DNA from: a virus
Virus record (IMG/VR): IMGVR_UViG_3300047547_000250
Coordinates: 1-55,059 of that record
Length of the DNA stretch: 55,059 bases
Direction: 5' to 3' (one strand)
This document shows, piece after piece, positions 31,226-47,001 of this stretch. Made by a program: the position numbers and the translations under genes. Numbering within the stretch: the stretch's first letter is position 1; the number at the start of each line of letters is the position of its first letter. Below the pieces are notes generated by a model, which saw only the letters and a program-made list of their open reading frames with translations, made no database searches and was not told the origin of the DNA.

Positions 31226-31522
31226 ATGACGGTTACATTGCGCGTACTTACAAACACAGGTGACACCACAAAAGGAGCACCGCTTTCAAACGCTGAGATT
31301 GATCAAAACTTTATTTCACTTGGTACCAATCCTAAATTCAATGGAAATGAAGGATTGAAGTTGCCAGCTGGTACAACATCTCAACGTGCATCTACACCAC
31401 AAACAGGTGAATTACGTTTTAATACGGAGTTAGGGACTTCAGAAATATACAATGGTGCTGAGTGGACTTCTGTTGGTGGGTCTGATGTGTTTGCAAAAAC
31501 CGTTGCATTGATTGGTCTATAA
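31226..31522 (+). CDS. Short fibre-base protein (98 aa)
   Basis: Contains PLSNAEIDQNFISLG (about 24-38), the frequent phage-fibre start motif, and LKLPAGTTSQRASTPQTGEL with FNTELGTSEIYNGAEWTSVG, the usual fibre beta module. It is too short to be a full fibre. Its last base overlaps the first RCC1 gene start (taATG), so it is probably the adaptor or first subunit of the RCC1 fibre set. Confidence 0.6.
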   Translation: MTVTLRVLTNTGDTTKGAPLSNAEIDQNFISLGTNPKFNGNEGLKLPAGTTSQRASTPQTGELRFNTELGTSEIYNGAEWTSVGGSDVFAKTVALIGL

Positions 31523-32868
31523 TGACAGTAAGCAACAAGGTTCTCGTTGATAAAATATCAAATGGTATTGCTGCAGGTCCATCAGCAGAGGATCTTGCTA
31601 CCTTGTTGACTGCGAGAAAAGAGTTGCAATCAATGTTTTTTTCGGTTGCAACAGAAGCAGAGTTGCCTATTGCTAGTGAAAATAAAGGTCGCATGATTTG
31701 GGTCGATTCACTGAAAGGCTATAGATTCAGTGATGGGATTGATTGGGTTAAAAAGTTTCCAACACCAATTAGGTATGAAAATGTTATATGGACTTGGGGT
31801 GGGGGTGCTAATGGCAGACTTGGCGACAATACTACAATAAACAAATCCTCACCCGTATCAGTTGTAGGTGGGTTTACAGACTGGTGTAAAGTAAGCGCTG
31901 GGTGTTTTCACTCAGCTGCTGTTCGTACCAATGGTACCATCTGGACATGGGGTGATAGTTCTGTTGGTCAACTTGGAAACAACACAATTATAGGCAAATC
32001 CTCACCAGTCTCTATAGTAGGTGGGTTTACAGACTGGTGTCAAGTAAGCGCTGGTAACAAACATACAGCTGCTGTACGTACTAATGGTACTATATGGACG
32101 TGGGGTTATGGATTTTTAGGTATACTTGGTGATAACACTATCGCAAATAAATCCTCCCCAGTCTCTGTTTTAGGTGGATTTACGGATTGGTGCCAAGTAA
32201 GCGCAGGTAGTTATCACACAGCTGCTGTGCGTACCAATAGTACCATCTGGACATGGGGTGATAGTTCTGTTGGTCAACTCGGGGATAATACAATTGTATC
32301 AAAATCATCACCAGTCTCAGTAGTCGGTGGATTCACTGACTGGTGTCAAGTGAGCGCTGGTAATCAACACACAGCTGCTGTGCGTACCAATGGTACATTG
32401 TGGGCTTGGGGGTGTGCTGGTACTGGTAGACTTGGTAATAACGATGCTACAGTTAATATATCTTCACCAGTATCTGTAGTCGGTGGATTCACCGACTGGT
32501 GCCAAGTAAGCGCTAGAGGATGTAATACCGCGGCTGTACGCACCAACGGTACATTGTGGTCATGGGGGTGTGGTACTAATGGTCAACTTGGTGATAACAC
32601 TATTGTAAACAAATCATCACCTGTATCAGTTGTTGGTGGATTCACTGACTGGTGTCAAGTTGATGTTGGTAGTAATCACTCAGCGGCTGTTCGTACTAAT
32701 GGTACATTGTGGACTTGGGGTGGTGGTACATATGGTAGACTAGGCGATAACACTATTGTATACAAACCCTCTCCAGTCTCAGTAGCAGGTGGATTTACCG
32801 ACTGGTGTCAAGTGAGTACCATGTTACAAAACACCGTAGCAATTAGAAAAAGACAGATTGGATTCTAA
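31522..32868 (+). CDS. RCC1 propeller tail-tip protein A1 (448 aa)
   Basis: A-class adaptor (residues 1-88): TVSNKVLVDKISNG, then FSVATEAELPIASENKGR and MIWVDSLKGYRFSDG, a short fibre-type domain ending at the first WTWG. Seven RCC1 blades follow; variable loops read GGANG, DSSVG, FLG, DSSVG, AGTG, GTNG, GTYG. The last strand (NTVAIRKRQIGF) would close blade seven with the first strand (VIWTWG), a velcro closure. Start overlaps the fibre-base stop by one base; the stop abuts B1. The propeller probably binds a receptor or glycan; this role is inferred. Confidence 0.85.
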   Translation: MTVSNKVLVDKISNGIAAGPSAEDLATLLTARKELQSMFFSVATEAELPIASENKGRMIWVDSLKGYRFSDGIDWVKKFPTPIRYENVIWTWGGGANGRLGDNTTINKSSPVSVVGGFTDWCKVSAGCFHSAAVRTNGTIWTWGDSSVGQLGNNTIIGKSSPVSIVGGFTDWCQVSAGNKHTAAVRTNGTIWTWGYGFLGILGDNTIANKSSPVSVLGGFTDWCQVSAGSYHTAAVRTNSTIWTWGDSSVGQLGDNTIVSKSSPVSVVGGFTDWCQVSAGNQHTAAVRTNGTLWAWGCAGTGRLGNNDATVNISSPVSVVGGFTDWCQVSARGCNTAAVRTNGTLWSWGCGTNGQLGDNTIVNKSSPVSVVGGFTDWCQVDVGSNHSAAVRTNGTLWTWGGGTYGRLGDNTIVYKPSPVSVAGGFTDWCQVSTMLQNTVAIRKRQIGF

Positions 32869-34206
32869 ATGGCTCTAAATTTTGGAAAACTTGAGCTAGA
32901 CCTAGCTGCTGTATCAAAAAATCTTACAAAGGCATCTGATAAATTATTGTTCAGTAAGATACTATCGAAGTTGCAAAACGGCTCAGTAACTGTTGTTGGT
33001 TCATTTTCTTTATTGCCTGTACTATCATCTGTGGCTGATGGGTCTTTATATTTTACTGAGAGTGATGGTGCTTTATATGTTGCTGATAGTAGCATATCCA
33101 ATTGGAGATTGTTGAGTAAAACGTATTATGGTGCTATTTGGGGATGGGGCGGAAATGCACGTGGACAACTAGGTGACAACACTATTTTATCAAGATCATC
33201 ACCAATATTAGCAGCTGTCGGATTTACTGATTGGTGTCAAGTAAGTGCTGGTAGCTCTCACACAGCCGCTGTACGCACCAATGGTACATTGTGGGCTTGG
33301 GGGTGTGCTGGTACTGGCAGACTCGGTGATAATACCGCTACAGACAAATCCTCCCCAGTATCAGTCGTAGGTGGATTCACCGACTGGTGTCAAGTAAGTG
33401 GTGGAACAAGCCATACAGCTGCTGTTCGTACTAATGGTACATTGTGGGCTTGGGGTAATAATCTTAGTGGTAGACTTGGTGACAATACTATTACATCTAA
33501 ATCATCTCCAGTCTCAGTTGTAGGTGGATTTACAGATTGGTGCCAAGTAAGCGTTAGTGTTACTCATGCTATATCCGTTAGAACGAATTGTACTATATGG
33601 GCTTGGGGGGATAATACAGCTGGAATTCTTGGTGACAATACCATTGTATCTAAATCCTCACCAGTCTCCGTAGTCGGTGGATTTACAGACTGGTGCCAAG
33701 TTAGTGCTGGTAATGTACACACAGCGGCTGTTCGTACTAATGGTACTATTTGGGGTTGGGGCTGCAATACTAGTGGTAGAATTGGTGACAATACTACAGT
33801 AAACAAATCCTCACCAGTCTCAGTTGTAGGTGGATTCACTGACTGGTGCCAAGTGAGTGCTGGTTATAACACTGCTGCTATTCGTACCAACGGTACTATT
33901 TGGGCTTGGGGTCCTGGTATATGTGGTATGCTTGGTGACAATACTACAGTAAACAAATCCTCCCCGGTATCAGTAGTCGGTGGATTTACAGACTGGTGCC
34001 AGGTAAGCGTTGGATGTTCACACACATCTGCTGTGCGTACCAATGGTACTATTTGGAGTTGGGGGTGCAACAGTTATGGTGCTCTTGGCAATAATGATAT
34101 TGTATCAAGGTCCTCACCAGTCTCAGTCGTAGGTGGATTTACTAATTGGAAACAAGTAAGCGCATCAAACAACACAACTTTAGCACTTCAAGTAAAATCA
34201 GTATAA
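32869..34206 (+). CDS. RCC1 propeller tail-tip protein B1 (445 aa)
   Basis: B-class adaptor (1-90): ALNFGKLELDLAAVSKN, KLLFSKILSKLQNG, then LPVLSSVADGSLYFTESDGA and LYVADSSISNWR. Seven blades, the first starting IWGWGGNARG and the last ending NNTTLALQVKSV. The last blade departs from the scaffold (FTNWKQVSAS). B1 starts directly after the A1 stop with no Shine-Dalgarno, so it probably relies on coupling. The 18 bases CAGATTGGATTCTAAATG at the A1/B1 junction recur exactly at A3/B3. Confidence 0.85.
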   Translation: MALNFGKLELDLAAVSKNLTKASDKLLFSKILSKLQNGSVTVVGSFSLLPVLSSVADGSLYFTESDGALYVADSSISNWRLLSKTYYGAIWGWGGNARGQLGDNTILSRSSPILAAVGFTDWCQVSAGSSHTAAVRTNGTLWAWGCAGTGRLGDNTATDKSSPVSVVGGFTDWCQVSGGTSHTAAVRTNGTLWAWGNNLSGRLGDNTITSKSSPVSVVGGFTDWCQVSVSVTHAISVRTNCTIWAWGDNTAGILGDNTIVSKSSPVSVVGGFTDWCQVSAGNVHTAAVRTNGTIWGWGCNTSGRIGDNTTVNKSSPVSVVGGFTDWCQVSAGYNTAAIRTNGTIWAWGPGICGMLGDNTTVNKSSPVSVVGGFTDWCQVSVGCSHTSAVRTNGTIWSWGCNSYGALGNNDIVSRSSPVSVVGGFTNWKQVSASNNTTLALQVKSV

Positions 34207-34209
34207 ATA
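34202..34209 (+). promoter_or_regulatory. Exact T4 late promoter match TATAAATA
   Basis: TATAAATA overlaps the B1 stop codon and lies 18 bases before the ATG at 34228, with TAAGGAG between. It is the only perfect match to the T4 late consensus noticed here and falls exactly where the non-RCC1 gene interrupts the array. Confidence 0.45.
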
Positions 34210-34227
34210 TAAGATTAAGGAGTTCAT

Positions 34228-34851
34228 ATGTTCGTTTTAGTACACAACGGTAGAGTTTTAGTTGGTCCAATGGGTTGGAACCGTGCCATGTTTGATGGTA
34301 ATCTTGAGAAATTGAAAATTCAATTTACGTTACCACGTGCAGAGCCAGATGTTTTACCATTAGTAATCAATGAAAACACTGTAATCAAACGAGTAGATTT
34401 TGATTATCCAGTATACAATCCAAAGATTCAATATCTAGAAGGTCCATATTGGGATCATACGCAAACTAATTCTAGAGCGTTTTACGAAGTAAAACCACAA
34501 CCTATTGAGTCAGTCAAGGCAAATTTGAAACAAATTGTTGCTGAGAATCGTTGGAAAAAAGAAGTTGCTGGTACAAAAACAACTATACAAGGAGTTGAAG
34601 TAACTGTTGATACTGCTCGTGGTTCACGTGACATATTTGTTCAAAAGTATCTACTGTTGCCTGAAAATGGAACTGTTGGCTGGAAATTTCCTGAGTGTTG
34701 GATGACTCTAACTAAAGCTGAGTTAGGTGCAGCAGTATCAGCTGGTGCATCGCATGTTGAAAATGCATTCATTTGGGAAGCAACTAAAGCTAATTTGATT
34801 GATTTTAGTGATACACTAGAGCAACTGAACGTTATCAATCTTGAAGAGTAA
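34228..34851 (+). CDS. DUF4376-like protein inside the RCC1 array (207 aa)
   Basis: Strong ribosome site (TAAGGAG). The first 90 residues are a beta-rich domain (MFVLVHNGRVLVGPMGWN). The C-terminal 110 residues fit DUF4376: ENRWKKEVAGTKTTIQGVEV, VDTARGSRDIFVQKYLL, VGWKFPECWMTLTKAELGAA and HVENAFIWEATKANLID. Such proteins are encoded beside tail fibres and may act as fibre-assembly chaperones or structural parts; that is known by association only. It separates B1 from C1 and is the only unrelated gene in the array. Confidence 0.65.
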   Translation: MFVLVHNGRVLVGPMGWNRAMFDGNLEKLKIQFTLPRAEPDVLPLVINENTVIKRVDFDYPVYNPKIQYLEGPYWDHTQTNSRAFYEVKPQPIESVKANLKQIVAENRWKKEVAGTKTTIQGVEVTVDTARGSRDIFVQKYLLLPENGTVGWKFPECWMTLTKAELGAAVSAGASHVENAFIWEATKANLIDFSDTLEQLNVINLEE

Positions 34852-34859
34852 ATATCAGT

Positions 34860-36230
34860 ATGGCTGATATTAATCAAGAAGTTCTACGTCGAATGGTGTC
34901 CACTAAGTTGGGCACTGTTTCAGTGTCTTCTGATTCGTCTGACTTTTTAATAACTCAGGCTGCAAATATTTTAGAACCAACGAACAGAGAATTTTTTGTT
35001 GCAACTGCTAATGATCTACCCGATCTATATTTGAAAAAAATACCCAATGGTACCATTGTATATGTTGACTCACTTGGAACTCAATTAGTTTCAAACAATG
35101 AAAAATGGTATGGTTTAGATGGTAGGTTGTTTAGAGATGATGCTCCTAGTAGAACGATTTGGGCTTGGGGGTGCAATGCTTCTGGTCAACTTAGTGACAA
35201 TACTATTGTAGCAAAATCATCTCCAGTCTCAGTAGTCGGTGGATTCACTGACTGGTGTCAGGTAAGCGCTGGATTGAACTGGTCAGCTGCTGTACGTAGC
35301 AATGGTACTATTTGGAGTTGGGGGTGTAACACATATGGTAGACTTGGTGACAATACTATTGTAGACAAATCCTCACCAGTCTCAGTAGTCGGTGGATTTA
35401 CAGATTGGTGTCAGGTTGATTCTGGACGATACCATTCAATTGCAATACGTACCAGTGGTACATTATGGGCATGGGGACGAGGTAGTGTTGGTAGACTAGG
35501 TGATAATTCAACTACAAGCAAATCCTCACCAGTATCAGTAGTCGGTGGATTCACTGACTGGTGTCAGGTAAGCGCTGGCAATCAACACACAGCTGCTGTA
35601 CGTAGCAATGGTACTATTTGGAGTTGGGGATATGGGTGTAATGGTAGACTTGGAGACAATACTATTGTAGACAAATCCTCACCAGTATCAGTAGTCGGTG
35701 GATTTACAGACTGGTGTCAAGTAAGCGCTGGGTGCGTGCACTCAGCTGCTGTGCGTACCAATGGTACTGTTTGGGCTTGGGGTATCGGTGTAGATGGTAG
35801 ACTTGGAGACAATACTATTGTAGCAAAATCATCTCCAGTCTCAGTCGTAGGTGGATTTACAGATTGGTGCCAAGTAAGCGCTGGTGATGCACACACAGCT
35901 GCTGTTCGTATCAATGGTACTATTTGGAGTTGGGGTAGTAATATATGCAGCAGACTTGGTGATAATACTATTGTAGACAAATCCTCCCCAGTATCTGTAG
36001 TCGGTGGATTTACAGATTGGTGTCAAGTGAGTGTTGGTAATGCACACTCAACCGCTGTACGTACCAATGGTACTATATGGTCTTGGGGTAGTGGTAGTAG
36101 TGGTAAACTAGGTGATAATACTATTGTAGACAAATCCTCACCAATCTCAGTAGTCGGTGGATTTACAGACTGGTGCCAAGTGGGTGCTGGTGTATATCAC
36201 ACCGCTGCATTAAGAATAACAAATATATGA
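34860..36230 (+). CDS. RCC1 propeller tail-tip protein C1 (456 aa)
   Basis: C-class adaptor (1-100): ADINQEVLRRMVSTKLG, FVATANDLPDLYLKKIPNGT, IVYVDSLGTQLVSNNEKW and GLDGRLFRDDAPSRTIWAWG. Seven blades follow, loops such as CNASG, CNTYG, RGSVG, YGCNG, IGVDG, SNICS, SGSSG. The third blade has a divergent CQVDSGRYHSIAIRTSG. It ends HTAALRITNI, close to the C3 end (HSVALRVTDI). Its stop overlaps the A2 start by ATGA. Confidence 0.85.
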   Translation: MADINQEVLRRMVSTKLGTVSVSSDSSDFLITQAANILEPTNREFFVATANDLPDLYLKKIPNGTIVYVDSLGTQLVSNNEKWYGLDGRLFRDDAPSRTIWAWGCNASGQLSDNTIVAKSSPVSVVGGFTDWCQVSAGLNWSAAVRSNGTIWSWGCNTYGRLGDNTIVDKSSPVSVVGGFTDWCQVDSGRYHSIAIRTSGTLWAWGRGSVGRLGDNSTTSKSSPVSVVGGFTDWCQVSAGNQHTAAVRSNGTIWSWGYGCNGRLGDNTIVDKSSPVSVVGGFTDWCQVSAGCVHSAAVRTNGTVWAWGIGVDGRLGDNTIVAKSSPVSVVGGFTDWCQVSAGDAHTAAVRINGTIWSWGSNICSRLGDNTIVDKSSPVSVVGGFTDWCQVSVGNAHSTAVRTNGTIWSWGSGSSGKLGDNTIVDKSSPISVVGGFTDWCQVGAGVYHTAALRITNI

Positions 36231-37576
36231 CAGTAAGTATTCAACCACTATACGACATAATCAACAATAAAGTAGCATTACCTGCTACTAAACCTGTTGA
36301 ATTAATGCAACTGTCTGAAGCAGCAAAGATGCTTGATAGTATTGTGTATCGTGTTGCTAACTTAGCAGCACTTCCACCGGCGGCTGAAAACAAAGGTAGA
36401 TTGATTTGGGTTGATGATATCCAGAACTATCGATACAGCAATGGTACAACTTGGAGTATTGAATACAATAGTACACAAGTTATTAATAATGATATATGGA
36501 CTTGGGGTAATAATACCTCTGGTAGACTTGGTGACAATACCATTGCAGACAAATCCTCCCCAGTATCAGTCGTAGGTGGATTCACTGATTGGTCCCAAGT
36601 GAGCGCTGGTTGTCAACACACAGCTGCTGTACGTACTAACGGTACTATTTGGACTTGGGGTAACAATGCTTCTGGTAGACTTGGTGATAACACTATTGCA
36701 GACAAATCATCCCCAGTCTCAGTTGTGGGTGGGTTTACAGACTGGTGCCAAGTGGGTGCTGGATGCGCACACACAGCTGCTGTTCGTACCAATGGTACTA
36801 TTTGGAGCTGGGGCATTAATACCAGTGGTAGACTTGGTAACAATGCTATTGTAACTAGATCATCCCCAGTCTCAGTTGTCGGTGGATTCACTGACTGGTG
36901 CCAGGTAAGCGCTGGTGATTATCACACTGCTGCTGTACGTACCAATGGTACTATTTGGACTTGGGGGTATAATAACTCTGGTAGACTTGGTGATAACACT
37001 ATTGCAGACAAATCATCCCCGGTCTCTGTAGTTGGTGGATTCACTGATTGGTGCCAAGTGAGTGCTGGATATTCACACACAGCTGCTGTACGTACCAATG
37101 GTACTATTTGGAGTTGGGGTGTTAATGCTGCAGGTAAACTTGGTGATGGTACAGTTGCAGCAAGCTCATCCCCAGTCTCAGTTGTGGGTGGATTCACTGA
37201 CTGGTGCCAAGTAAGCGCTAGCAGTGGTCATACAGTTGCTGTTCGTACCAATGGTACTATTTGGAGTTGGGGGTTCAATGGTTCTGGTAGACTAGGGAAC
37301 AACGCAGTTGCAGCAAGCTCATCCCCAGTCTCAGTTGTGGGTGGATTCACTGACTGGTGCCAAGTAAGCGCTAGCAGTGGTCATACAGTTGCTGTTCGTA
37401 CCAATGGTACTATTTGGAGTTGGGGGTGTGGTAGTTCAGGTCAACTTGGTGACAATACCATTGCAGACAAATCCTCCCCAGTATCAGTCGTAGGTGGATT
37501 CACTGATTGGTCCCAAGTGAGCGCTAGTGGTCTGATTGCGATCGCAATCAGAACATATTCAGCTAAAGGTTTCTAA
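36227..37576 (+). CDS. RCC1 propeller tail-tip protein A2 (449 aa)
   Basis: The start at 36227 is chosen over 36173 because it gives an ATGA overlap with C1 and a normal A-class N-terminus (TVSIQPLYDIINNKVALP, YRVANLAALPPAAENKGRLI, WVDDIQNYRYSNG). Seven blades; those near 37152 and 37305 carry a 122-base exact duplication. Loop types NNTSG, NNASG, INTSG, YNNSG, VNAAG, FNGSG and CGSSG. It ends IAIAIRTYSAKGF. The +1 upstream extension is out-of-frame C1 sequence and not expected to be translated. Confidence 0.85.
   Translation: MTVSIQPLYDIINNKVALPATKPVELMQLSEAAKMLDSIVYRVANLAALPPAAENKGRLIWVDDIQNYRYSNGTTWSIEYNSTQVINNDIWTWGNNTSGRLGDNTIADKSSPVSVVGGFTDWSQVSAGCQHTAAVRTNGTIWTWGNNASGRLGDNTIADKSSPVSVVGGFTDWCQVGAGCAHTAAVRTNGTIWSWGINTSGRLGNNAIVTRSSPVSVVGGFTDWCQVSAGDYHTAAVRTNGTIWTWGYNNSGRLGDNTIADKSSPVSVVGGFTDWCQVSAGYSHTAAVRTNGTIWSWGVNAAGKLGDGTVAASSSPVSVVGGFTDWCQVSASSGHTVAVRTNGTIWSWGFNGSGRLGNNAVAASSSPVSVVGGFTDWCQVSASSGHTVAVRTNGTIWSWGCGSSGQLGDNTIADKSSPVSVVGGFTDWSQVSASGLIAIAIRTYSAKGF
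37152..37426 (+). repeat. 122-base exact blade duplication within A2
   Basis: Bases 37152-37273 recur exactly at 37305-37426, a 153-base offset equal to one 51-residue blade. The repeat carries the rare AASSSPVS loop and SASSGHTVAV segment in both copies, marking a recent tandem blade duplication or conversion. Confidence 0.9.
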
Positions 37577-38919
37577 TGTCATTCAATTTTACTAATTTAG
37601 AAATGGCATTATCTGAGAAGATGTCTTCAGGTACGTCATATGATCTTTTGTTGTATACAAAAGCATTGAAATTTTTGTCTCAAAATCTTGTATCTACTGT
37701 AAGACAATTTTCAGATCTACCAACATTAAGTTCAGTCACTGAAGGTAGTTTGTATTTGGTTGAAACTGAGAACGTAGTGTACGTTGCAGATAAAACAACG
37801 TATGGTGGATTCTGGAAGCCAATTAAAACTGACTACAGTAGCAAGGTTTGGACATGGGGTAGTAATGCATGTGGTCAACTCGGTAATAATACTGTTGTAG
37901 CACTATCATCCCCTGTATCAGTTGTAGGTTCTTTTACTGACTGGTGTCAAGTAAGTGCCGGTTGTCGTATGACTGTTGCTGTACGTTCTAATGGTACTAT
38001 TTGGACTTGGGGTTGTAACAATGGTGGTGAGCTCGGTGATAACACCATTGTATCTAAGTCATCACCAGTCTCAGTCGTAGGTGGATTTACAGATTGGTGT
38101 CAAGTAAGTGCTAGTGAACATACAACTGCTGGTGTACGTAGTAATAGTACATTATGGACTTGGGGCACCAATGCTGCTGGTAAACTCGGTGATAATACTA
38201 CATTAAACAAATCCTCACCAATCTCCGTAGTAGGTGGATTTACTGACTGGTGTCAAGTAAGCGCTGGAATTATACATACAATGGCAGTAAGATCCAATGG
38301 TACTATTTGGAGTTGGGGGTGCGGTGCATGTGGATTGTTAGGTAACAATTCTACTGTTAATAGATCATCTCCAGTCTCAGTAGTCGGTGGATTCACTGAC
38401 TGGTGCCAAGTAAGTGCTGGTACTGGACATACAGTCGCTGTGCGTACAAATGGTACTATTTGGAGTTGGGGTTGTGCAACTAACGGTAGACTTGGTGACA
38501 ATACTACAGCGTGTAAATCTTCTCCAGTCTCAGTAGTCGGTGGATTCACTGACTGGTGCCAAGTAAGCGCCGGTGATATACATTCCGCTGCTGTACGCAC
38601 TAATGGTACTGTGTGGACTTGGGGTCAAAATCCAGCTGGTCAACTTGGTGACAATACTATTGCTAACAAATCCTCTCCAGTCTCAGTAGTTGGTGGATTT
38701 ACAGACTGGTGTCAAGTAAGTGCAATTTACAGACACACAGCGGCTGTGCGTACCAATGGTACTATTTGGACTTGGGGAAGTAGTACGGCCGGTCAACTTG
38801 GCGACAATACTACAATAAACAAATCCTCTCCAGTCTCTGTCGTAGGTGGATTTACTGACTGGTGTCAAGTAAGCACTGGTAGCTTACATACAGTCGCAAT
38901 TCAAAAGAAAGTACATTAA
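37576..38919 (+). CDS. RCC1 propeller tail-tip protein B2 (447 aa)
   Basis: B-class adaptor (1-90): SFNFTNLEMALSEKMSSG, LLYTKALKFLSQNLVS, then FSDLPTLSSVTEGSLYLVE and VVYVADKTTYGGFW. It starts by a one-base overlap with A2 (taATG). Seven blades; blade 4 (CGACGLLGNNSTVNRSSP) is nearly the same as blade 6 of B3, including 40 identical bases. The end is HTVAIQKKVH. No ribosome site of its own is visible. Confidence 0.85.
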   Translation: MSFNFTNLEMALSEKMSSGTSYDLLLYTKALKFLSQNLVSTVRQFSDLPTLSSVTEGSLYLVETENVVYVADKTTYGGFWKPIKTDYSSKVWTWGSNACGQLGNNTVVALSSPVSVVGSFTDWCQVSAGCRMTVAVRSNGTIWTWGCNNGGELGDNTIVSKSSPVSVVGGFTDWCQVSASEHTTAGVRSNSTLWTWGTNAAGKLGDNTTLNKSSPISVVGGFTDWCQVSAGIIHTMAVRSNGTIWSWGCGACGLLGNNSTVNRSSPVSVVGGFTDWCQVSAGTGHTVAVRTNGTIWSWGCATNGRLGDNTTACKSSPVSVVGGFTDWCQVSAGDIHSAAVRTNGTVWTWGQNPAGQLGDNTIANKSSPVSVVGGFTDWCQVSAIYRHTAAVRTNGTIWTWGSSTAGQLGDNTTINKSSPVSVVGGFTDWCQVSTGSLHTVAIQKKVH

Positions 38920-40280
38920 TGTCATTAATAAACGCTACTTCACTTGAAGCTACTTTAGCATCTGCGATTGCAACTGTTAATGCATCTTCACTTGAAAATG
39001 TATATTCATTAATTGATGCTAATAATGTAATTAATGTTGATGCAATGTTTTATGTACAGACAGCAAATGATCTACCAGATCTTGCTACTGTACCAATTCC
39101 TAATGGTCAAATCGTATATGTAAACTCTATATCACTACATGTCATATCATGGAATTATAAGTGGATTTCATTTGATGGTAGAGTGTATAGAGATGATTCA
39201 AATGTTAATACTATTTGGAGTTGGGGCTGTGCAGGTAACGGTAGACTTGGTGACGATACTAGTTTAGACAAATCCTCTCCGGTATCAGTTGTAGGTGGAT
39301 TTACTGATTGGTGTCAAGTAAGTGTTGGTGGTAGCCATACATCTGCTGTGCGTACCAATGGTACTATCTGGGCTTGGGGACAAGGTAGTGCTGGTAAACT
39401 CGGTGATAATTCAACTACAAGCAAATCCTCACCAGTCTCTGTAGTCGGTGGATTTACTGATTGGTGTCAAGTAAGTGTTGGTGGTAGCCATACATCTGCT
39501 GTGCGTACCAATGGTACTATCTGGGCTTGGGGTAGCAATGCTGATGGTAAACTTGGTGATAACACTGCTACGTCTAAATCCTCACCAGTCTCTGTAGTCG
39601 GTGGATTTACTGATTGGTGTCAAGTAAGTGCTGGTGGTAGCCATACATCTGCTGTGCGTACCAATGGTACTATTTGGGCTTGGGGTAGCAATGAATTTGG
39701 TAAACTCGGTGATAATTCAACTACAAGCAAATCCTCACCAGTCTCTGTAGTCGGTGGATTTACTGATTGGTGTCAAGTGAGTGCTGGATGTGCACACTCA
39801 CTTGCTGTGCGTACCAATGGTACTATTTGGGCTTGGGGTAGTAATGGTGCAGGTAGACTTGGAGACAATACTACTGTATCAACCTCTTCACCAGTCTCTG
39901 TAGTCGGTGGGTTCACTGATTGGTGTCAAGTAAGCGCTGGCATTCAACACACAGCTGCTGTTCGCACTAATGGTACTATATGGACTTGGGGTAGTAATGG
40001 TGCAGGTATACTAGGTGACAATACTATTGCTAACAAATCCTCCCCAGTCTCAGTTGTCGGTGGATTCACTGACTGGTGCCAGGTAAGCGCTGGTGATTAT
40101 CACACTGCTGCTGTACGTACCAATGGTACTATTTGGACTTGGGGTAGTGGTGGTAGTGGTAGACTTGGTAGTGACACTATTACGACTAAATCATCTCCAG
40201 TCTCAGTAGTCGGTGGATTCACTGACTGGTGCCAAGTAAGCGCTGGTGTTTATCACACCGCTGCAATCCGTACCACATAA
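38919..40280 (+). CDS. RCC1 propeller tail-tip protein C2 (453 aa)
   Basis: C-class adaptor (1-100): SLINATSLEATLASAIAT, YVQTANDLPDLATVPIPNGQ, IVYVNSISLHVISW and FDGRVYRDDSNVNTIWSWG. Starts by one-base overlap with B2. Blades 2-4 share near-identical GGSHTSAVRTNGTIWAWG segments, and one blade (40041-40144) is identical over 104 bases to a blade of A2. It ends HTAAIRTT, then an 8-base gap to A3. Confidence 0.85.
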   Translation: MSLINATSLEATLASAIATVNASSLENVYSLIDANNVINVDAMFYVQTANDLPDLATVPIPNGQIVYVNSISLHVISWNYKWISFDGRVYRDDSNVNTIWSWGCAGNGRLGDDTSLDKSSPVSVVGGFTDWCQVSVGGSHTSAVRTNGTIWAWGQGSAGKLGDNSTTSKSSPVSVVGGFTDWCQVSVGGSHTSAVRTNGTIWAWGSNADGKLGDNTATSKSSPVSVVGGFTDWCQVSAGGSHTSAVRTNGTIWAWGSNEFGKLGDNSTTSKSSPVSVVGGFTDWCQVSAGCAHSLAVRTNGTIWAWGSNGAGRLGDNTTVSTSSPVSVVGGFTDWCQVSAGIQHTAAVRTNGTIWTWGSNGAGILGDNTIANKSSPVSVVGGFTDWCQVSAGDYHTAAVRTNGTIWTWGSGGSGRLGSDTITTKSSPVSVVGGFTDWCQVSAGVYHTAAIRTT

Positions 40281-40288
40281 ATAAGTGT

Positions 40289-41632
40289 ATGACAATTAGT
40301 AACAAACACTTAATCGACAAAATCAACATAGAAATGGTTGGATCACCAACTGACATTTCTGATGTAACTGCTCTAACTAAAGCATCAATTGATGTTAGAC
40401 AAGTATTTTCTGTTGCTGACTTACAATCTTTACCAGCTGCGTTACTTAATACTGGTAGATTGGTATGGGTTCAATCTATTAAAGATTACAGATACAGTAA
40501 TGGTGTTGACTGGGTAAGAGATTTTAACAGCACAGTACATTATGAGAATACAGTTTGGGCTTGGGGGTTCGCTGCATGTGGTGCATTAGGTGATAACAGT
40601 GTTACAAACAAATCCTCCCCTGTCTCTGTAGTCGGTGGATTTACAGACTGGTGTCAAGTAAGTAGTGGATGTGCTAGCTCAGCTGCTGTACGTACCAATG
40701 GTACTATTTGGAGTTGGGGATGTGCAGGTAGTAGTCAACTTGGTGATAATACTGTAGTTAGTAGATCCTCCCCTGTCTCAGTTGTAGGTGGATTCACTGA
40801 CTGGTGCCAGGTTAATGTTGGTTTGTGTCATACAGTTGCTTTACGTACTAATGGTTCTATATGGACATGGGGTTGCAATTTAAATGGTCAACTTGGTGAC
40901 AACACTACTATAGCTAAATCCTCACCAATCTCAGTTGTTGGTGGATTCACTGATTGGTGTCAAGTAAGCGCTGGTGGTAGCCATACATCTGCTGTACGTA
41001 CCAATGGTACTATTTGGGCTTGGGGTAGCAATGCTGATGGTAGACTTGGTGACAACACTACTATAGGTAAATCCTCACCAGTCTCTGTTGTAGGTGGATT
41101 CACTGATTGGTGCCAAGTGAGTGCTGGTAGTTTACATACTGTTGCAATCCGTACCAATGGTACTATTTGGAGTTGGGGGAGTAATATCTCTGGTAGACTT
41201 GGTGACAATACTATTGTAGACAAATCATCACCAGTCTCCGTAGTCGGTGGATTCACTGACTGGTGTCAAGTGAGTACAGGTGGTTCCCACACAGCAGCAG
41301 TGAGAACTAATGGTACTATTTGGACTTGGGGATACAATGCTTGTGGTAGGCTTGGTGATAATACTGTAGTTAGTAGACCCTCTCCAGTATCTGTAGTCGG
41401 TGGATTCACTGATTGGTGTCAAGTGAGTGCTAGTAATGGTCACACCTCAGCTATTCGTACCAATGGTACTATTTGGAGTTGGGGTTGCAATGCGTCTGGT
41501 CAACTTGGAGACAATACTATTGTAGCAAAATCCTCCCCAGTCTCTGTTGCTAGTGGGTTCAGTGATTGGTGTCAGGTAAGCGCTGGTAGCAATGCTACAT
41601 TCGCAATCAAAAAGCGTCAGATTGGATTCTAA
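40289..41632 (+). CDS. RCC1 propeller tail-tip protein A3 (447 aa)
   Basis: The start at 40289 restores the A-class N-terminus (TISNKHLIDKINIEMVG, then FSVADLQSLPAALLNTGRL and VWVQSIKDYRYSNG); the upstream in-frame ATG at 40229 lies inside C2 coding sequence. Seven blades; the last has variant scaffold (VASGFSDWCQV). The C-terminus ATFAIKKRQIGF shares the RQIGF ending of A1. The stop abuts B3 with the same junction bases as A1/B1. Confidence 0.85.
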   Translation: MTISNKHLIDKINIEMVGSPTDISDVTALTKASIDVRQVFSVADLQSLPAALLNTGRLVWVQSIKDYRYSNGVDWVRDFNSTVHYENTVWAWGFAACGALGDNSVTNKSSPVSVVGGFTDWCQVSSGCASSAAVRTNGTIWSWGCAGSSQLGDNTVVSRSSPVSVVGGFTDWCQVNVGLCHTVALRTNGSIWTWGCNLNGQLGDNTTIAKSSPISVVGGFTDWCQVSAGGSHTSAVRTNGTIWAWGSNADGRLGDNTTIGKSSPVSVVGGFTDWCQVSAGSLHTVAIRTNGTIWSWGSNISGRLGDNTIVDKSSPVSVVGGFTDWCQVSTGGSHTAAVRTNGTIWTWGYNACGRLGDNTVVSRPSPVSVVGGFTDWCQVSASNGHTSAIRTNGTIWSWGCNASGQLGDNTIVAKSSPVSVASGFSDWCQVSAGSNATFAIKKRQIGF

Positions 41633-42991
41633 ATGACACTGAATATACAACAAATAGAAAAAACAATCTCTGATGCTATTGAAAAAACTTTAAATGCAAA
41701 CGATGTATTGTTATTGAGTAAATCAATTTCATTGTTGAAAACTGGTGGTGTTATTGTTGTACCATCATTTTCTAATCTACCACTAATTGATACTGTTGAA
41801 TCTGGTACATTAGCATATGTAAAGACTGACAACTTATTGTATGTAGCAGATAAGAAAGATCTGTATGCTGACTTACATATTTGGAGATCGATTCAGAAAG
41901 ATTACATTTCAACTGTTTGGGGTTGGGGTGCTAATGGTTCTGGTAGACTTGGAGACAATACTACTGTATCCAAATCCTCTCCAGTCTCAGTTGTGGGTGG
42001 GTTTACAGATTGGTGTCAAGTAAGTGCTGGTGGCAATCATTCAGCGGCTGTTCGCACCAATGGTACTATTTGGGCTTGGGGGTGTGGTAGTTCAGGTCAA
42101 CTTGGTAGTGACACTATTACGACTAAATCATCACCAGTCTCAGTAGTTGGTGGATTCACCGACTGGTGTCAAGTGAGTGGTGGATTGTTTCACACAGCTG
42201 CTGTACGTAGCAATGGTACTATTTGGAGTTGGGGTAGTGGTAGTAGTGGTCAACTTGGAGACAATACGCTTGTAACTAGATCCTCCCCAGTATCAGTTGT
42301 AGGTGGATTCACAGACTGGTGTCAAGTAAGCGCTGGTGATGCACACACAGCTGCTGTACGTAGCAATGGTACTATTTGGAGTTGGGGAATTGGTTCTTGT
42401 GGTAGGCTTGGTGACAATACTATTGTAACTAAATCATCACCTGTCTCAGTTGTTGGTGGATTCACTGATTGGTGTCAAGTAAGCGCTGGTGGTAGCCATA
42501 CATCTGCTGTTCGTACCAACGGTACTATTTGGGCATGGGGTAATAATGGGTTTGGTCAGCTTGGCAACAATGATTTTATATCCAAATCCTCCCCAGTCTC
42601 TGTAGTCGGTGGATTCACTGATTGGTGTCAAGTAAGCGCTGGTGTGTACCATACATCTGCTGTACGTACCAATGGTACTATTTGGACTTGGGGGTGTGGT
42701 ACATGTGGATTGTTAGGTAACAATTCTACTGTTAATAGATCCTCACCAGTATCAGTTGTAGGTGGATTCACTGATTGGTGTCAAGTGAGTGCTGGTAGAT
42801 GTCACACCGCTGCTGTGCGTACTAATGGTACTGTGTGGAGCTGGGGTTCTAATGAGTTTGGTAGACTAGGTGACAATACTATTGTAGACAAATCCTCCCC
42901 AGTATCAGTCGTAGGTGGATTCACTGATTGGTCCCAAGTGGGTGCTGGTGGATGTCACGCTACTGCTATTAGAAAAAGATTAATGCTATGA
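41633..42991 (+). CDS. RCC1 propeller tail-tip protein B3 (452 aa)
   Basis: B-class adaptor (1-98): TLNIQQIEKTISDAIEKT, LLLSKSISLLKTGGV, FSNLPLIDTVESGTLAYVK and LLYVADKKDLYADLHIW. It is a few residues longer than B1 and B2. Seven blades; blade 6 is shared with B2. Blade 7 reads FTDWSQVGAGGCH, and the end is ATAIRKRLML. It overlaps C3 by ATGA. Confidence 0.85.
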   Translation: MTLNIQQIEKTISDAIEKTLNANDVLLLSKSISLLKTGGVIVVPSFSNLPLIDTVESGTLAYVKTDNLLYVADKKDLYADLHIWRSIQKDYISTVWGWGANGSGRLGDNTTVSKSSPVSVVGGFTDWCQVSAGGNHSAAVRTNGTIWAWGCGSSGQLGSDTITTKSSPVSVVGGFTDWCQVSGGLFHTAAVRSNGTIWSWGSGSSGQLGDNTLVTRSSPVSVVGGFTDWCQVSAGDAHTAAVRSNGTIWSWGIGSCGRLGDNTIVTKSSPVSVVGGFTDWCQVSAGGSHTSAVRTNGTIWAWGNNGFGQLGNNDFISKSSPVSVVGGFTDWCQVSAGVYHTSAVRTNGTIWTWGCGTCGLLGNNSTVNRSSPVSVVGGFTDWCQVSAGRCHTAAVRTNGTVWSWGSNEFGRLGDNTIVDKSSPVSVVGGFTDWSQVGAGGCHATAIRKRLML

Positions 42992-44355
42992 ATACATTAG
43001 ATACTCAATACAACGAGTCAAGAACTCAAGAATTAATCAATACACTAACCACTTCCACTAAGGAAGGGATGTTGCTTGCTGCAATATCAACAAATGCAGT
43101 ATCAGATAATCGCCAAGTATCAGTTGCAACAGCAAATGACTTACCAGATCTGTTTCTTACAAGAATACCAGATGGTACTATTGTGTTTGTTGAAGCAATC
43201 AATATGCATGTTATTGCAAACACAGAGCGATGGATGAGCTTAGATGGTCGAGTCTACCGCAATGATGCACCTAGTAGAACGGTTTGGAGTTGGGGGTGTG
43301 CTGGTAGTGGTCAGCTTGGCGATGACACTATCGTTGATAAATCCTCACCAGTATCGGTAGTCGGTGGATTCACTGATTGGTGCCAAGTAAGCGCTGGGTG
43401 TAATCATTCAGCTGCTGTGCGCATGAATGGTACTCTGTGGGGTTGGGGTAGCGATATTAACGGTAAACTTGGTGATAATAATTCAGTATCAACATCATCC
43501 CCGGTCTCTGTAGTCGGTGGATTTACTGATTGGTGTCAAGTAAGTGCTGGAATGCCCCACTCAGCTGCTGTGCGCACCAATGGTACTATTTGGAGTTGGG
43601 GTAGCGGTGCAGATGGTAGACTTGGTGATAATACGCTTGTAACTAGATCCTCACCAGTATCAGTTGTAGGTGGATTTACTGACTGGTGTCAAGTGAGTGC
43701 TGGTGGATTTCATACTGCAGCTGTGCGTACCAATGGTACTGTGTGGAGTTGGGGTAATAATACCTCTGGTAGACTTGGTGATAATACCGCTACAGACAAA
43801 TCCTCTCCAGTCTCTGTAGTCGGTGGATTCACTGACTGGTGTCAAGTGAGTGTTGGGTATGAACATTCAACTGCTATCCGTACCAATGGTACTATATGGA
43901 GTTGGGGTCTTGGTAGTTCAGGTAGACTTGGTGACAATACTAATGTAACTAGATCCTCACCAGTATCAGTTGTAGGTGGATTCACTGACTGGTGTCAAGT
44001 TAGTGTTGGTGTTTGTCACACTGCTGCTGTGCGTACCAATGGTACTATTTGGAGTTGGGGAAATGGATGTTTTGGTATACTTGGTGACAATACTATTACA
44101 ACTAGATCCTCCCCAGTCTCAGTTGTAGGTGGATTTACTGACTGGTGCCAAGTAAGCGCTGGTAGGTGTCACACCGCTGCTGTGCGTACTAATGGTACTA
44201 TTTGGACTTGGGGTAATAATAGTAGCGGTAGACTTGGTAATGGTACAGTTACGACAAGTTCATCGCCAGTCTCTACCGTTAGCGGGTTCACTGACTGGTG
44301 CCAAGTGGGTGCTGGTGGCTTTCACTCAGTCGCATTAAGAGTAACAGACATATAA
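42988..44355 (+). CDS. RCC1 propeller tail-tip protein C3 (455 aa)
   Basis: C-class adaptor (1-100): NTLDTQYNESRTQELINT, SVATANDLPDLFLTRIPDGT, IVFVEAINMHVIANTERW and LDGRVYRNDAPSRTVWSWG. Seven blades with loops CAGSG, SDINGK, SGADG, NNTSG, LGSSG, NGCFG, NNSSG; the last blade has a variant PVSTVSGFTDWCQVGAG. It ends HSVALRVTDI. It closes the array; a hairpin-forming gap then leads into the glycan genes. Confidence 0.85.
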   Translation: MNTLDTQYNESRTQELINTLTTSTKEGMLLAAISTNAVSDNRQVSVATANDLPDLFLTRIPDGTIVFVEAINMHVIANTERWMSLDGRVYRNDAPSRTVWSWGCAGSGQLGDDTIVDKSSPVSVVGGFTDWCQVSAGCNHSAAVRMNGTLWGWGSDINGKLGDNNSVSTSSPVSVVGGFTDWCQVSAGMPHSAAVRTNGTIWSWGSGADGRLGDNTLVTRSSPVSVVGGFTDWCQVSAGGFHTAAVRTNGTVWSWGNNTSGRLGDNTATDKSSPVSVVGGFTDWCQVSVGYEHSTAIRTNGTIWSWGLGSSGRLGDNTNVTRSSPVSVVGGFTDWCQVSVGVCHTAAVRTNGTIWSWGNGCFGILGDNTITTRSSPVSVVGGFTDWCQVSAGRCHTAAVRTNGTIWTWGNNSSGRLGNGTVTTSSSPVSTVSGFTDWCQVGAGGFHSVALRVTDI

Positions 44356-44416: not shown

Positions 44417-45100
44417 ATGACATCTTTGAATCTAACGCCATGTAATAACATGGCAGTTGAAAACGCATACATTATCACAATAAAAAACAATGAAACATCC
44501 GAGTTTCTTTCAGCTCGATGTCAACAATCCTGCATTGAAACAAATATGCCATACAGTATATGGCAAGCATTCGATGGTACAGGCAGTGATATTAAAATCC
44601 CAGACAATCTAAAAGATGCATCTTGGTTAAAATGGTTCAAGTTGTATGAAACATTTCTTTCACCAACAGAAGTATCGTGTTACCTATCCCATCTCTCATT
44701 GTGGGTACACTGTATGGAAATTGACCAACCCATTGTGATTCTAGAACACGATGCTGTCATGGTTGCACCCTATAGAAACCATTTTGGATTCAACCAAATT
44801 GTATACCTAGGATGTTCCGAACAAGCAAAGGGATGGAATGTAACACCTATACCACCCATGGGACAAAGAAATCCAAACTACAAATTCATGCTGAGAGCAC
44901 ATGCATATGCAGTGGACCCACATTCAGCAAAAAATCTTGTTGCACACACTCTAAAATATGGTATAAATGAATCATTAGATGTTACAATGAGGGCTGACAT
45001 TTTTGGTATCATTCAAGGTGGATTATTTGCATTTGATATACCCTACCATGAATCTACCATAAACAGCAGAAAAAAACATCCAGATGGAACAGAAAGGTAA
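44417..45100 (+). CDS. GT25-family LPS-type glycosyltransferase
   Basis: 227 residues. The N-terminal strand AYIITIKNNETSEFLSARC (about 18-35) is typical of family 25 transferases of LPS biosynthesis. LSPTEVSCYLSHLSLW (81-96) is the conserved S-x-x-E-x-x-C-x-x-SH block. LEHDAVM (109-115) holds the acidic metal/sugar site. A later LRAHAYAVDPHSAKNL fits the acceptor side. It probably adds a sugar (often galactose) to a lipooligosaccharide or protein glycan. No clear ribosome site; ATG 44450 is an alternative start. Confidence 0.8.
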   Translation: MTSLNLTPCNNMAVENAYIITIKNNETSEFLSARCQQSCIETNMPYSIWQAFDGTGSDIKIPDNLKDASWLKWFKLYETFLSPTEVSCYLSHLSLWVHCMEIDQPIVILEHDAVMVAPYRNHFGFNQIVYLGCSEQAKGWNVTPIPPMGQRNPNYKFMLRAHAYAVDPHSAKNLVAHTLKYGINESLDVTMRADIFGIIQGGLFAFDIPYHESTINSRKKHPDGTER

Positions 45101-45103
45101 ACA

Positions 45104-45649
45104 ATGAAACTTAATATTGGCTCAGGTGGTACGCAATACGAAGGTTATAAAACATGTGATTATGATCCTTTAGCAGAACCAGATTTTTTGTTCAACTTAG
45201 AAACAGATCGTTTTCCCTTTGAAGATAGTACAGTCGAATCTGTTATTGCACATCATGTTTTTGAACATCTCGGTGAAGGATACTTCAATTGTTTAAAAGA
45301 GCTGTACCGAGTATGTAAACACGGTGCAATCATCGATGTTCGAGTACCACATCACCGACATGATTATTTCTTCGATGATCCTACACATCGTCGACCCATT
45401 ACTGTTGGTGGAATGCTCTTGTTCAGTAAAAAGCATAACAAGCTATGCAAAGAACAAGGTGCTGCATCATCTAGACTGGGTGACTATTTTGATGTTGACT
45501 TTGAAATTGTTCAACATGAAATTGTCCCCTCTGGTAAGTACCGTGAACAGTTTGTTGGTATGGACCGAGAAACTGTTGAATCATATCTACGTGAACACAG
45601 CAATATCATTGAAGAAGTATGGATGCAACTAGTAGTCGTCAAAGAATGA
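45104..45649 (+). CDS. SAM-dependent methyltransferase, glycan-locus type
   Basis: 181 residues, class I Rossmann methyltransferase. Motif I is LNIGSGG (3-9), the acidic ribose binder lies at about D19-D21 (TCDYDP), and HHVFEHLGEG (50-59) with ELYRVCKHGAIIDVRVPH follow. The later HDYFFDDPTHRRP segment is characteristic of methyltransferases in surface-polysaccharide loci. It starts three bases after GT25 and its end overlaps the next gene by ATGA. Substrate unknown; sugar O-methylation is plausible. Confidence 0.8.
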   Translation: MKLNIGSGGTQYEGYKTCDYDPLAEPDFLFNLETDRFPFEDSTVESVIAHHVFEHLGEGYFNCLKELYRVCKHGAIIDVRVPHHRHDYFFDDPTHRRPITVGGMLLFSKKHNKLCKEQGAASSRLGDYFDVDFEIVQHEIVPSGKYREQFVGMDRETVESYLREHSNIIEEVWMQLVVVKE

Positions 45650-47001
45650 GAAAGTTTGATGCAAACCACGCAAGTGGTATTGTAATGGACTTACTGACCA
45701 GTGAAAAACGCAAAATTGCGTTTGAAATACTGGATATGTACTATATGCACGCTGAAACACTTTCGGACTTTGACATACTAGGTGGTCTTGCTCTAAAAGC
45801 AGAACATCGTCAGTTGTATCTAAAGTGTGCAGAAGCAGCGTATACCAAAGCAGAGACATCTGAACAGTTGTATATTGCTAGATCCAATCTCTATAAAGCA
45901 TACAATGCATTGAACTATCCAGAAAAGGCATTGTTCTACATTGGTCTAAATCTCAAAGTAACACCAGATGATTTTGAGACACAGACACAACGAGCATTCA
46001 ACCTAGCATTGCAAGGAAATCGTCGAGAGTCAGAGGATATTCTGTCTGGACTTGCAGTCAAGTTTCCTGATAGAGCAAAAGATCTTAAAAGTGCATTCTC
46101 TGGTAAAATGTTACGCAATGGCAATACAGCAGAAGGCATTTTATCATTCATTGAAACATTTAAACCCAAGAATGTACTGTTTGATGATGTCTTAAAAATG
46201 AAACGTTGGGATGGTATTCCTCGTCCAGGAAAAACAATCTATGTCGATGGTGAAGGTGGCATTGGTGATGAAATCATTAACATCCGTTTCTTTAAGCATC
46301 TTGAAGATCTAGGAATGAAACCAATTCTATATTCTGCTTGGTCTGAATATAGAAAAGATACTATTGAGTTTTTCAAACGAAATGGATTTGAGGTTACTAC
46401 CGATAAAATTACAGTTGATAGAACACAGCTATGGGTACCAATGATGTCCTTACCAGGATATCTTAACCTAACTGAAAATCAACTATGGTATGGTCCATAT
46501 CTAACACCACAACGAAAGAATCAATTAAAATTTCCAAATGTGAAATTAAAAATTGGTATCAAATGCTCAGGTAATCCATATTTCAGCCAAGACGAATATC
46601 GAAAAATCGATATTGATAAAATGTTGGAGTATCTACCCATTGATAACAACCAAGTATGTGTCTATTACATTGACAAACAACCATTAAGTGATTTAAAGTT
46701 TCCAGTAGTTGACTTATCTCCAAATATAAAATCATGGGAAGATACATTAGACATCATTGACCAAATGGATGTTATTGTGAGCTCATGTACGAGCTTGGTG
46801 CATGCAGCAGGTGCAATGGGTAAAGAAACTCATGTGATTGTTCCAATCGCTGAATACTATATATGGTCAACTACAAGCAAAACAACTCGTAGTCCTTGGT
46901 ATGGTGAAAACTTTCATGTACATAAGCAAACAAAGGTTAGAAGTTGGGATGAGCCACTTCAAGAAGTGTCTATAGTATTAAACAAATTGATTGAGAAATA
47001 A
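45646..47001 (+). CDS. TPR-glycosyltransferase fusion, GT9/GT41-like
   Basis: 451 residues from the ATGA-overlap start (45646); 45619 is an alternative giving 460. The first 150 residues are helical repeats of TPR type (RSNLYKAYNALNYPEKALFY, NLALQGNRRESEDILSGLAV). The rest is a GT-B fold: YVDGEGGIGDEIINIRFF near 200-217 begins the nucleotide domain, and IVSSCTSLVHAAGAMGKETH near 378-397 is the donor-binding motif typical of GT9-like enzymes fused to TPRs. It probably glycosylates protein or LPS. One-base overlap with the sulfotransferase. Confidence 0.75.
   Translation: MRKFDANHASGIVMDLLTSEKRKIAFEILDMYYMHAETLSDFDILGGLALKAEHRQLYLKCAEAAYTKAETSEQLYIARSNLYKAYNALNYPEKALFYIGLNLKVTPDDFETQTQRAFNLALQGNRRESEDILSGLAVKFPDRAKDLKSAFSGKMLRNGNTAEGILSFIETFKPKNVLFDDVLKMKRWDGIPRPGKTIYVDGEGGIGDEIINIRFFKHLEDLGMKPILYSAWSEYRKDTIEFFKRNGFEVTTDKITVDRTQLWVPMMSLPGYLNLTENQLWYGPYLTPQRKNQLKFPNVKLKIGIKCSGNPYFSQDEYRKIDIDKMLEYLPIDNNQVCVYYIDKQPLSDLKFPVVDLSPNIKSWEDTLDIIDQMDVIVSSCTSLVHAAGAMGKETHVIVPIAEYYIWSTTSKTTRSPWYGENFHVHKQTKVRSWDEPLQEVSIVLNKLIEK

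What the first reader, a model, noticed from the sequence alone, without database searches (positions are those of the whole stretch)
31522..44355. Nine RCC1-propeller genes arranged as three iterations of an A-B-C triplet
Seen: the nine proteins share a propeller, but their 90-100-residue N-terminal adaptors fall into three classes that recur in strict order (A1 B1 C1, A2 B2 C2, A3 B3 C3). Class marks: A has ENKGR/NTGR then W-V and YR(F/Y)S(D/N)G; B has LP.L(S/D)(S/T)V..G(S/T)L then (V/L)LYVAD or LYVAD; C has TANDLPDL then IP(N/D)G. C-termini also follow class (A ends GF; C1 and C3 end LR(I/V)T(N/D)I). Inference: the unit of evolution was a three-gene cassette, and A, B and C may form a heteromeric fibre tip with three alternative sets. 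I know of no described phage system with this organisation.
Basis: partly seen in the sequence, partly recalled or inferred. Interest (0 to 1): 0.92.

Follow-up and report, generated by a model that had tools for sequence, protein, structure and literature searches.

The report
Three-part phage grips, shared propeller blades
A tailed phage carries nine propeller-shaped attachment proteins built on three kinds of base that come in equal numbers in nearly all complete relatives, while the propellers themselves trade pieces freely between the three kinds; this points to a three-part gripping tip whose binding face is constantly reshuffled.

Summary
Nine genes each carry a 90-100 residue adaptor and exactly seven RCC1 blades. 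The adaptors form three classes in the order ABC ABC ABC; one DUF4376 tail-fibre gene interrupts the first triplet. Across 47 adaptors from related viral contigs the classes separate with the fewest possible changes. Propellers carry no class signal and group by genome.

The order is not universal. Relatives show AB[c]C, AB[c]CABC, ABB[c]CAC and AABB[c]CC. Class number stays balanced in every complete cluster but one: 1:1:1, 2:2:2, 3:3:3. The exception is L033, which has A alone. Two contigs with unrelated adaptors also have three propeller genes, X Y [c] Z.

Near-identical sister phages differ by short tracts in blades, several with in-genome donors in genes of another class. Hypervariable residues lie on one propeller face, equivalent to the UVR8 dimer interface, opposite the adaptor.

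Best reading: a three-component receptor-binding tip, probably an A:B:C heterotrimer, whose fixed adaptors set assembly while a shared blade pool varies the binding face. The heteromer is inferred, not shown. RCC1 arrays are known in jumbo coliphages, but 121Q has the opposite design (one leader, divergent propellers). I rate this a new variant of a known kind.

The parts
31226..31522 (+). 98-aa upstream gene; ends FAKTVALIGL; counterpart directly before gene A in L018, L033 and L005
   Evidence: role inferred
31522..32868 (+). A1: class A adaptor (1-89) + 7 RCC1 blades, ends KRQIGF
   Evidence: AF2 model pLDDT 92
32869..34206 (+). B1: class B adaptor + 7 blades
34228..34851 (+). DUF4376 / tail-fibre family protein (phrog_10508), chaperone-like by position; between last B of the first block and first C in the relatives
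   Evidence: chaperone role inferred
34860..36230 (+). C1: class C adaptor + 7 blades, ends LRITNI
36227..37576 (+). A2: class A adaptor + 7 blades; start overlaps the stop of C1 by 4 bases
37576..38919 (+). B2: class B adaptor + 7 blades
38919..40280 (+). C2: class C adaptor + 7 blades, ends IRTT
40289..41632 (+). A3: class A adaptor + 7 blades, ends KRQIGF
41633..42991 (+). B3: class B adaptor + 7 blades
42988..44355 (+). C3: class C adaptor + 7 blades, ends LRVTDI; overlaps B3 by 4 bases
36863..36966 (+). 104-bp tract in A2 identical to 40041-40144 in C2 (cross-class sharing of blade sequence)
40041..40144 (+). partner tract in C2

Best explanation
These are receptor-binding tip proteins of a T4-like contractile-tailed phage, made as a three-component unit A:B:C. 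Each adaptor (a helical hairpin plus a small beta part resembling trimerising knobs) sets which subunit it is and how it assembles, most likely as a heterotrimer with one A, one B and one C. The DUF4376 protein probably helps assembly. The propeller's invariant face sits on the adaptor side; its other face, with hypervariable residues, points outward and binds the host surface. Adaptors are kept apart and in balance, while blades recombine within and between classes, so the phage varies its binding face from a pool of 63 blades without disturbing assembly. This phage carries three such sets. Shown: anatomy, classes, balanced counts, cross-class blade sharing, one-face variability. Inferred: heterotrimer, virion location, receptor binding, chaperone role.
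For: Adaptor classes separate minimally on a tree and propellers do not. Whole-record adaptor counts are 3, 6 or 9 in every cluster that is not cut, bar L033, with equal classes despite different orders. L027 and L031 have three propeller genes with another adaptor family, X Y [c] Z, orthologous by position. Blade pairs share long identical codon runs far beyond permutation (4 pairs of 25 or more codons vs 0), and a 104-bp tract joins A2 and C2. Sister phages of L010 differ by tracts with in-genome donors: 80 bp shared by C2 and B2, 41 bp by A2 and B1, 43 bp by A1 and B2. Variable positions 5, 7, 8, 18, 39, 40 fall in the two loops of one face by DSSP of a pLDDT-92 model; the termini emerge at the other face. 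They match UVR8 dimer-interface residues (PMC8748919). The adaptor model's first seven PDB matches are collagen XV/XVIII trimerisation domains, with phage Mtd and hyaluronidase fibres lower down, all weak. Baseplate wedge families lie just upstream. Precedent: three consecutive virophage tail proteins form a 1:1:1 heterotrimer (PMC12724248).
Against: L033 keeps A alone, with neither B, C nor the DUF4376 gene. L009/L025, L029 and L037 clusters are cut at contig ends. The trimer resemblance is not significant in any single test (best Foldseek E 0.49). Equal numbers could partly be inheritance of a duplicated cassette, with few independent events. Some variant tracts have no donor in the sequences held, and tract direction is not known. 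No virion proteomics exists for this phage.
Confidence: 0.5

Rival explanations
1. A, B and C are three separate homotrimeric fibre tips, each class docking on its own socket of the baseplate or fibre; multiple copies per class are alternative tips for that socket.
For: The three adaptor classes are diverged (12-23% identity) and class-specific; trimerising knobs of phage fibres are usually homotrimeric (general knowledge). L033 persists with A alone.
Against: Does not by itself explain equal class numbers in clusters of different order, nor three propeller genes with other adaptors in L027/L031.
Confidence: 0.3
2. A, B and C stack head to tail in one linear appendage (whisker-like) rather than forming a trimer.
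For: RCC1 genes occur in arrays in Rak2-like phages, some of which are described with whiskers (PMC5259590, PMC7247149); some relatives carry 14- to 39-blade chains.
Against: CBB, a whiskered phage, lacks the RCC1 gene GAP_001 (PMC5259590); no stacking domain seen; the adaptor resembles trimer knobs.
Confidence: 0.08
3. Equal class numbers are only the trace of tandem cassette duplication without functional coupling.
For: ABC ABC (L082) and ABC ABC ABC (window) look like tandem copies; within each class the window copies group together.
Against: Rearranged ABB[c]CAC and AABB[c]CC clusters keep 2:2:2.
Confidence: 0.25
4. The proteins act on DNA or regulation, as the database name 'regulator of chromosome condensation' says.
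For: PHROG category and names; suggestion for phAPEC6 (PMC7247149).
Against: Position just after baseplate wedge genes and beside a tail-fibre family gene; hypervariable outer face; GAP_001 is a virion structural protein (PMC5259590).
Confidence: 0.03

Closest known systems
RCC1-like gene arrays of Rak2-like jumbo coliphages (121Q 234-248, phAPEC6, GAP32 Gp1)
   Same: Tandem array of RCC1-like genes in a tailed phage; GAP_001 found in the virion by mass spectrometry (PMC5259590; PMC7247149).
   Different: In 121Q nearly all share one leader (MLPF.RM.KYGN.AP, also on a non-RCC1 protein) and propellers are mostly 16-24% identical: one anchor, many heads. Here there are three anchors and near-uniform propellers (67-76%).
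DSLV2 virophage tripartite tail (PMC12724248)
   Same: Three consecutive tail genes whose products form a 1:1:1 heterotrimeric receptor-binding fibre, the tripartite arrangement kept in relatives.
   Different: gp37-tip-like fibres, no propeller, no multiple sets; a virophage, not a phage.
UVR8 / RCC1 seven-bladed propellers
   Same: Same blade family (E 4e-53); the variable phage positions equal UVR8 interface residues (PMC8748919).
   Different: Eukaryotic signalling proteins without phage adaptor; blades far less uniform.
Staphylococcus phage phi11 receptor-binding protein
   Same: A phage receptor-binding protein with a beta-propeller (search hit PMC4901313; detail from general knowledge).
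   Different: Different propeller type, homotrimer, single gene (general knowledge).
Freshwater cyanophage S-SRM01 and marine virus AG-345-E08 RCC1 genes
   Same: Several RCC1 genes in the fibre region; S-SRM01 has a related DUF4376-like gene between two of them.
   Different: No A/B/C adaptor in the whole records.

Membership tests
RCC1-repeat seven-bladed propeller proteins | Seven RCC1 repeats over family cut-off | tested here: met
   PF00415 E 1e-55 to 1e-59, 7 stretches each on three proteins; 7 blades in all nine; closed propeller predicted at pLDDT 92
Phage receptor-binding tip proteins | Encoded in the baseplate/tail-fibre module beside a fibre-assembly gene | tested here: met
   Upstream baseplate wedge phrogs (219, 17744, 438) and adjacent tail-fibre family phrog_10508/DUF4376
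Phage receptor-binding tip proteins | Present on the virion and binds a host receptor | not testable with these tools
   Needs proteomics and adsorption assays
Heterotrimeric fibre (DSLV2 type) | Three related genes kept together and in equal number | tested here: met
   1:1:1, 2:2:2, 3:3:3 in clusters not cut by contig ends; exception L033. Genes are not always consecutive in ABC order
Heterotrimeric fibre (DSLV2 type) | 1:1:1 complex | not testable with these tools
   No multimer prediction available
Trimerising knob (collagen XV/XVIII, Mtd N-terminal) | Significant fold or sequence match | tested here: inconclusive
   Foldseek E 0.49 at best, Z 3.7; Pfam Collagen_trimer E 0.078, Mtd_N E 0.019
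Rak2-type RCC1 array | One shared N-terminal leader on diverse propellers | tested here: not met
   Three adaptor classes and uniform propellers against 121Q
Diversity-generating retroelement target | Reverse transcriptase near the variable genes | tested here: inconclusive
   No RVT_1 in the 55-kb record, which is probably a fragment; variation includes third codon positions, unlike adenine-directed mutagenesis

The most novel reading that the evidence does not exclude
A phage receptor-binding machine with a division of labour: three fixed adaptor classes build an obligate A:B:C heterotrimer, while one shared intragenomic pool of blades is moved between the three classes by gene conversion, changing the binding face much as antigenic-variation systems do, without a reverse transcriptase. 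This phage displays three such sets.
Probability: 0.35. Interest if true: 0.9.

Novelty: new variant of a known kind. Interest (0 to 1): 0.7.

Why it matters
If right, it is a phage adhesin that separates assembly from recognition: adaptors fix who assembles with whom, and blades recombine freely to vary what is bound. It would be a retroelement-free way to diversify host range, seen at population scale among near-identical viral contigs. It also bears on why phages carry proteins named 'regulator of chromosome condensation': here they look like surface-binding propellers. The A:B:C claim can be tested directly by co-expression.

Tried and rejected
Searching viral contigs with class A or class C adaptors of the window alone found nothing; whole-protein alignments did. 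The DUF4376 alignment was too diverse to search with. A diversity-generating retroelement was considered and set aside: no reverse transcriptase in the record, and third codon positions vary too. The idea that all three classes show the same ((1,3),2) history, proving two whole-cassette duplications, did not survive: AU tests reject no alternative and the class C tree alone differs. Profile searches of adaptors against PDB sequences gave nothing significant. Bacterial and archaeal genomes gave no relative. PADLOC gave nothing on two of the proteins. Two accessions (NC_025447, MK817115) are not held.

Full report
What is there. The window is a 55,059-base viral record, probably a fragment. Upstream genes match baseplate wedge families (phrog_219, 17744, 438). 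Then come a 98-aa gene (31226-31522) and nine RCC1 genes at 31522-44355. Each has an adaptor of 89-100 residues and exactly seven blades. Neighbouring genes in the array overlap by 1-4 bases or abut or nearly abut, apart from the DUF4376 gene 34228-34851 between B1 and C1, which suggests coupled translation.

Adaptor classes. Within a class the window's adaptors are 35-43% identical, between classes 14-23%. Profile comparison shows that the three classes still share an ancestor (A-B 99%, B-C 97%, A-C 95% probability). I collected 47 adaptors from the window and related contigs. On the tree, A, B and C separate with 2 changes, the least possible, against 22.3 for shuffled labels. I assigned the labels from motifs, so the tree is not blind. 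With eight more adaptors from L082 and L037 the total remains 2, with B lying between A and C.

Propellers. The same proteins' propellers carry no class signal: 23 changes against 22.2 shuffled. They carry a strong genome signal: 16 against 33.3. Mean propeller identity is 0.65-0.66 within a genome and 0.60 between genomes, whatever the class. Adaptor and propeller have thus evolved separately.

Order and number. Complete clusters (c = DUF4376 gene) are: L018 and L021 AB[c]C; L082 AB[c]CABC; L004, L005, L006 and L010 ABB[c]CAC; the window AB[c]CABCABC. L009 and L025 are the two ends of one 202-kb contig and read AABB[c]CC if the ends meet in the B gene, which is likely but not proven. L029 (AB[c]C) and L037 (AB) are cut by contig ends. 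Searching whole records with an adaptor profile gave 3, 6 or 9 adaptors except L033 (1) and L037 (2), and none in S-SRM01, BUCT-ZZ01, AG-345-E08 or eight other RCC1-bearing contigs. L033 has A alone with six blades, intact flanks, and no B, C or DUF4376 gene; recombination between blades could have deleted the rest (inference). L027 and L031 have a different adaptor family but again three RCC1 genes with [c] between the second and third, orthologous by position: X-X 52%, Y-Y 50%, Z-Z 58%, against 19-43% otherwise.

Cassette history. In the joint trees, sets 1 and 3 pair in all three classes, and the C-terminal tails of A1/A3 and C1/C3 agree. But AU tests reject no alternative and the class C tree alone does not repeat it. 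Duplication as a unit is therefore plausible, not shown.

Blade recombination. Between window blades, runs of identical codons far exceed a column-permutation control: 9 pairs with 15 or more codons against 0.5, and 4 with 25 or more against 0. One 104-bp identical tract joins A2 and C2, in the same blade phase. Contigs of the L010 group are about 99% identical in these genes. They differ mainly by clustered multi-base replacements in blades, several at the variable codons. In L017, a 54-bp stretch of B2 that differs from L010 is part of an 80-bp exact match to C2. In L011, a tract in B1 matches A2 over 41 bp, and one in B2 matches A1 over 43 bp. The 80-bp match is the longest repeat in the L017 cluster, and only 11-14% of cluster bases lie in any paralogous match of 40 bp or more. 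Three tested versions have no donor in the sequences held. Gene conversion between classes is the simplest reading; direction is not established.

Binding face. Amino-acid entropy peaks at blade positions 40, 39, 5, 7, 8 and 18 (3.72, 3.43, 3.29, 3.03, 3.02 and 2.49 bits), while most of positions 20-36 is nearly invariant though synonymous sites vary. In the predicted structure of A1 (pLDDT 92) positions 5-18 form the loop from strand 1 to 2 and 38-40 the turn from strand 3 to 4; both are on one face. The invariant loops 25-31 and 47-49 are on the other face, where both termini and so the adaptor emerge. I derived this from strand order, not from coordinates. By alignment positions 5, 7, 18, 39 and 40 are UVR8 W94, D96, D107, W233/W285/W337 and R234/R286/R338, the dimer-interface and salt-bridge residues named in PMC8748919.

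Adaptor fold. Helix 6-17, helix 22-38, then a small beta part. The best PDB matches are collagen XV/XVIII trimerisation domains, with phage Mtd and hyaluronidase fibres lower in the list; none is significant. Weak sequence matches point to the same families (Mtd_N E 0.019, Collagen_trimer E 0.078). One viral model matched at E 5.8e-5, an uncharacterised phage protein.

Mechanism. Most likely A, B and C are the three subunits of one receptor-binding tip, a heterotrimer if the knob resemblance is right, with blades recombining across subunits. The main rivals are three class-specific homotrimers, and equal numbers as a mere trace of duplication.

Novelty. Arrays of RCC1-like genes are known in Rak2-like phages (PMC5259590, PMC7247149), and a three-gene heterotrimeric tail is known in a virophage (PMC12724248). 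In 121Q the pattern is reversed: one shared leader and diverged propellers. I found no description of balanced adaptor classes with cross-class blade exchange in nine literature searches; the library lacks most subscription papers.

Noticed in passing
L009 4295-8161 and 11313-13802: A 1288-aa protein with about 20 RCC1 blades, and a class A adaptor followed by 14 blades (double propeller).
   Followed up: partly
L090 2956-9381, L091, L102; L087 6323-11725: Giant RCC1 chains of 39 and 37 blades (2141 and 1800 aa) in viral contigs.
   Followed up: no
L033 4368-5537: Class A gene alone with six blades; B, DUF4376 gene and C absent, flanking genes intact.
   Followed up: partly
L017 14698-15928: A2 gene broken by a frameshift after blade 5 in an otherwise near-identical sister of L010.
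   Followed up: no
window 44417-47001: Downstream GT25-like glycosyltransferase, methyltransferase and a further gene; methyltransferase homologues follow the cluster directly in most relatives, including L031-type contigs.
   Followed up: partly
window 31226-31522: Small gene with a conserved end (FA[KR]T[VI]A.[LI]GL) just before gene A in several relatives; its G.L.FN....E.YNG..W motif recalls the X/Y/Z adaptors.
   Followed up: partly
window 32852-32868 and 41616-41632: The end of A1 and A3 (RQIGF) is nearly identical DNA, AGATTGGATTCTAA, directly before the ATG of B; it may double as a translation signal.
   Followed up: no
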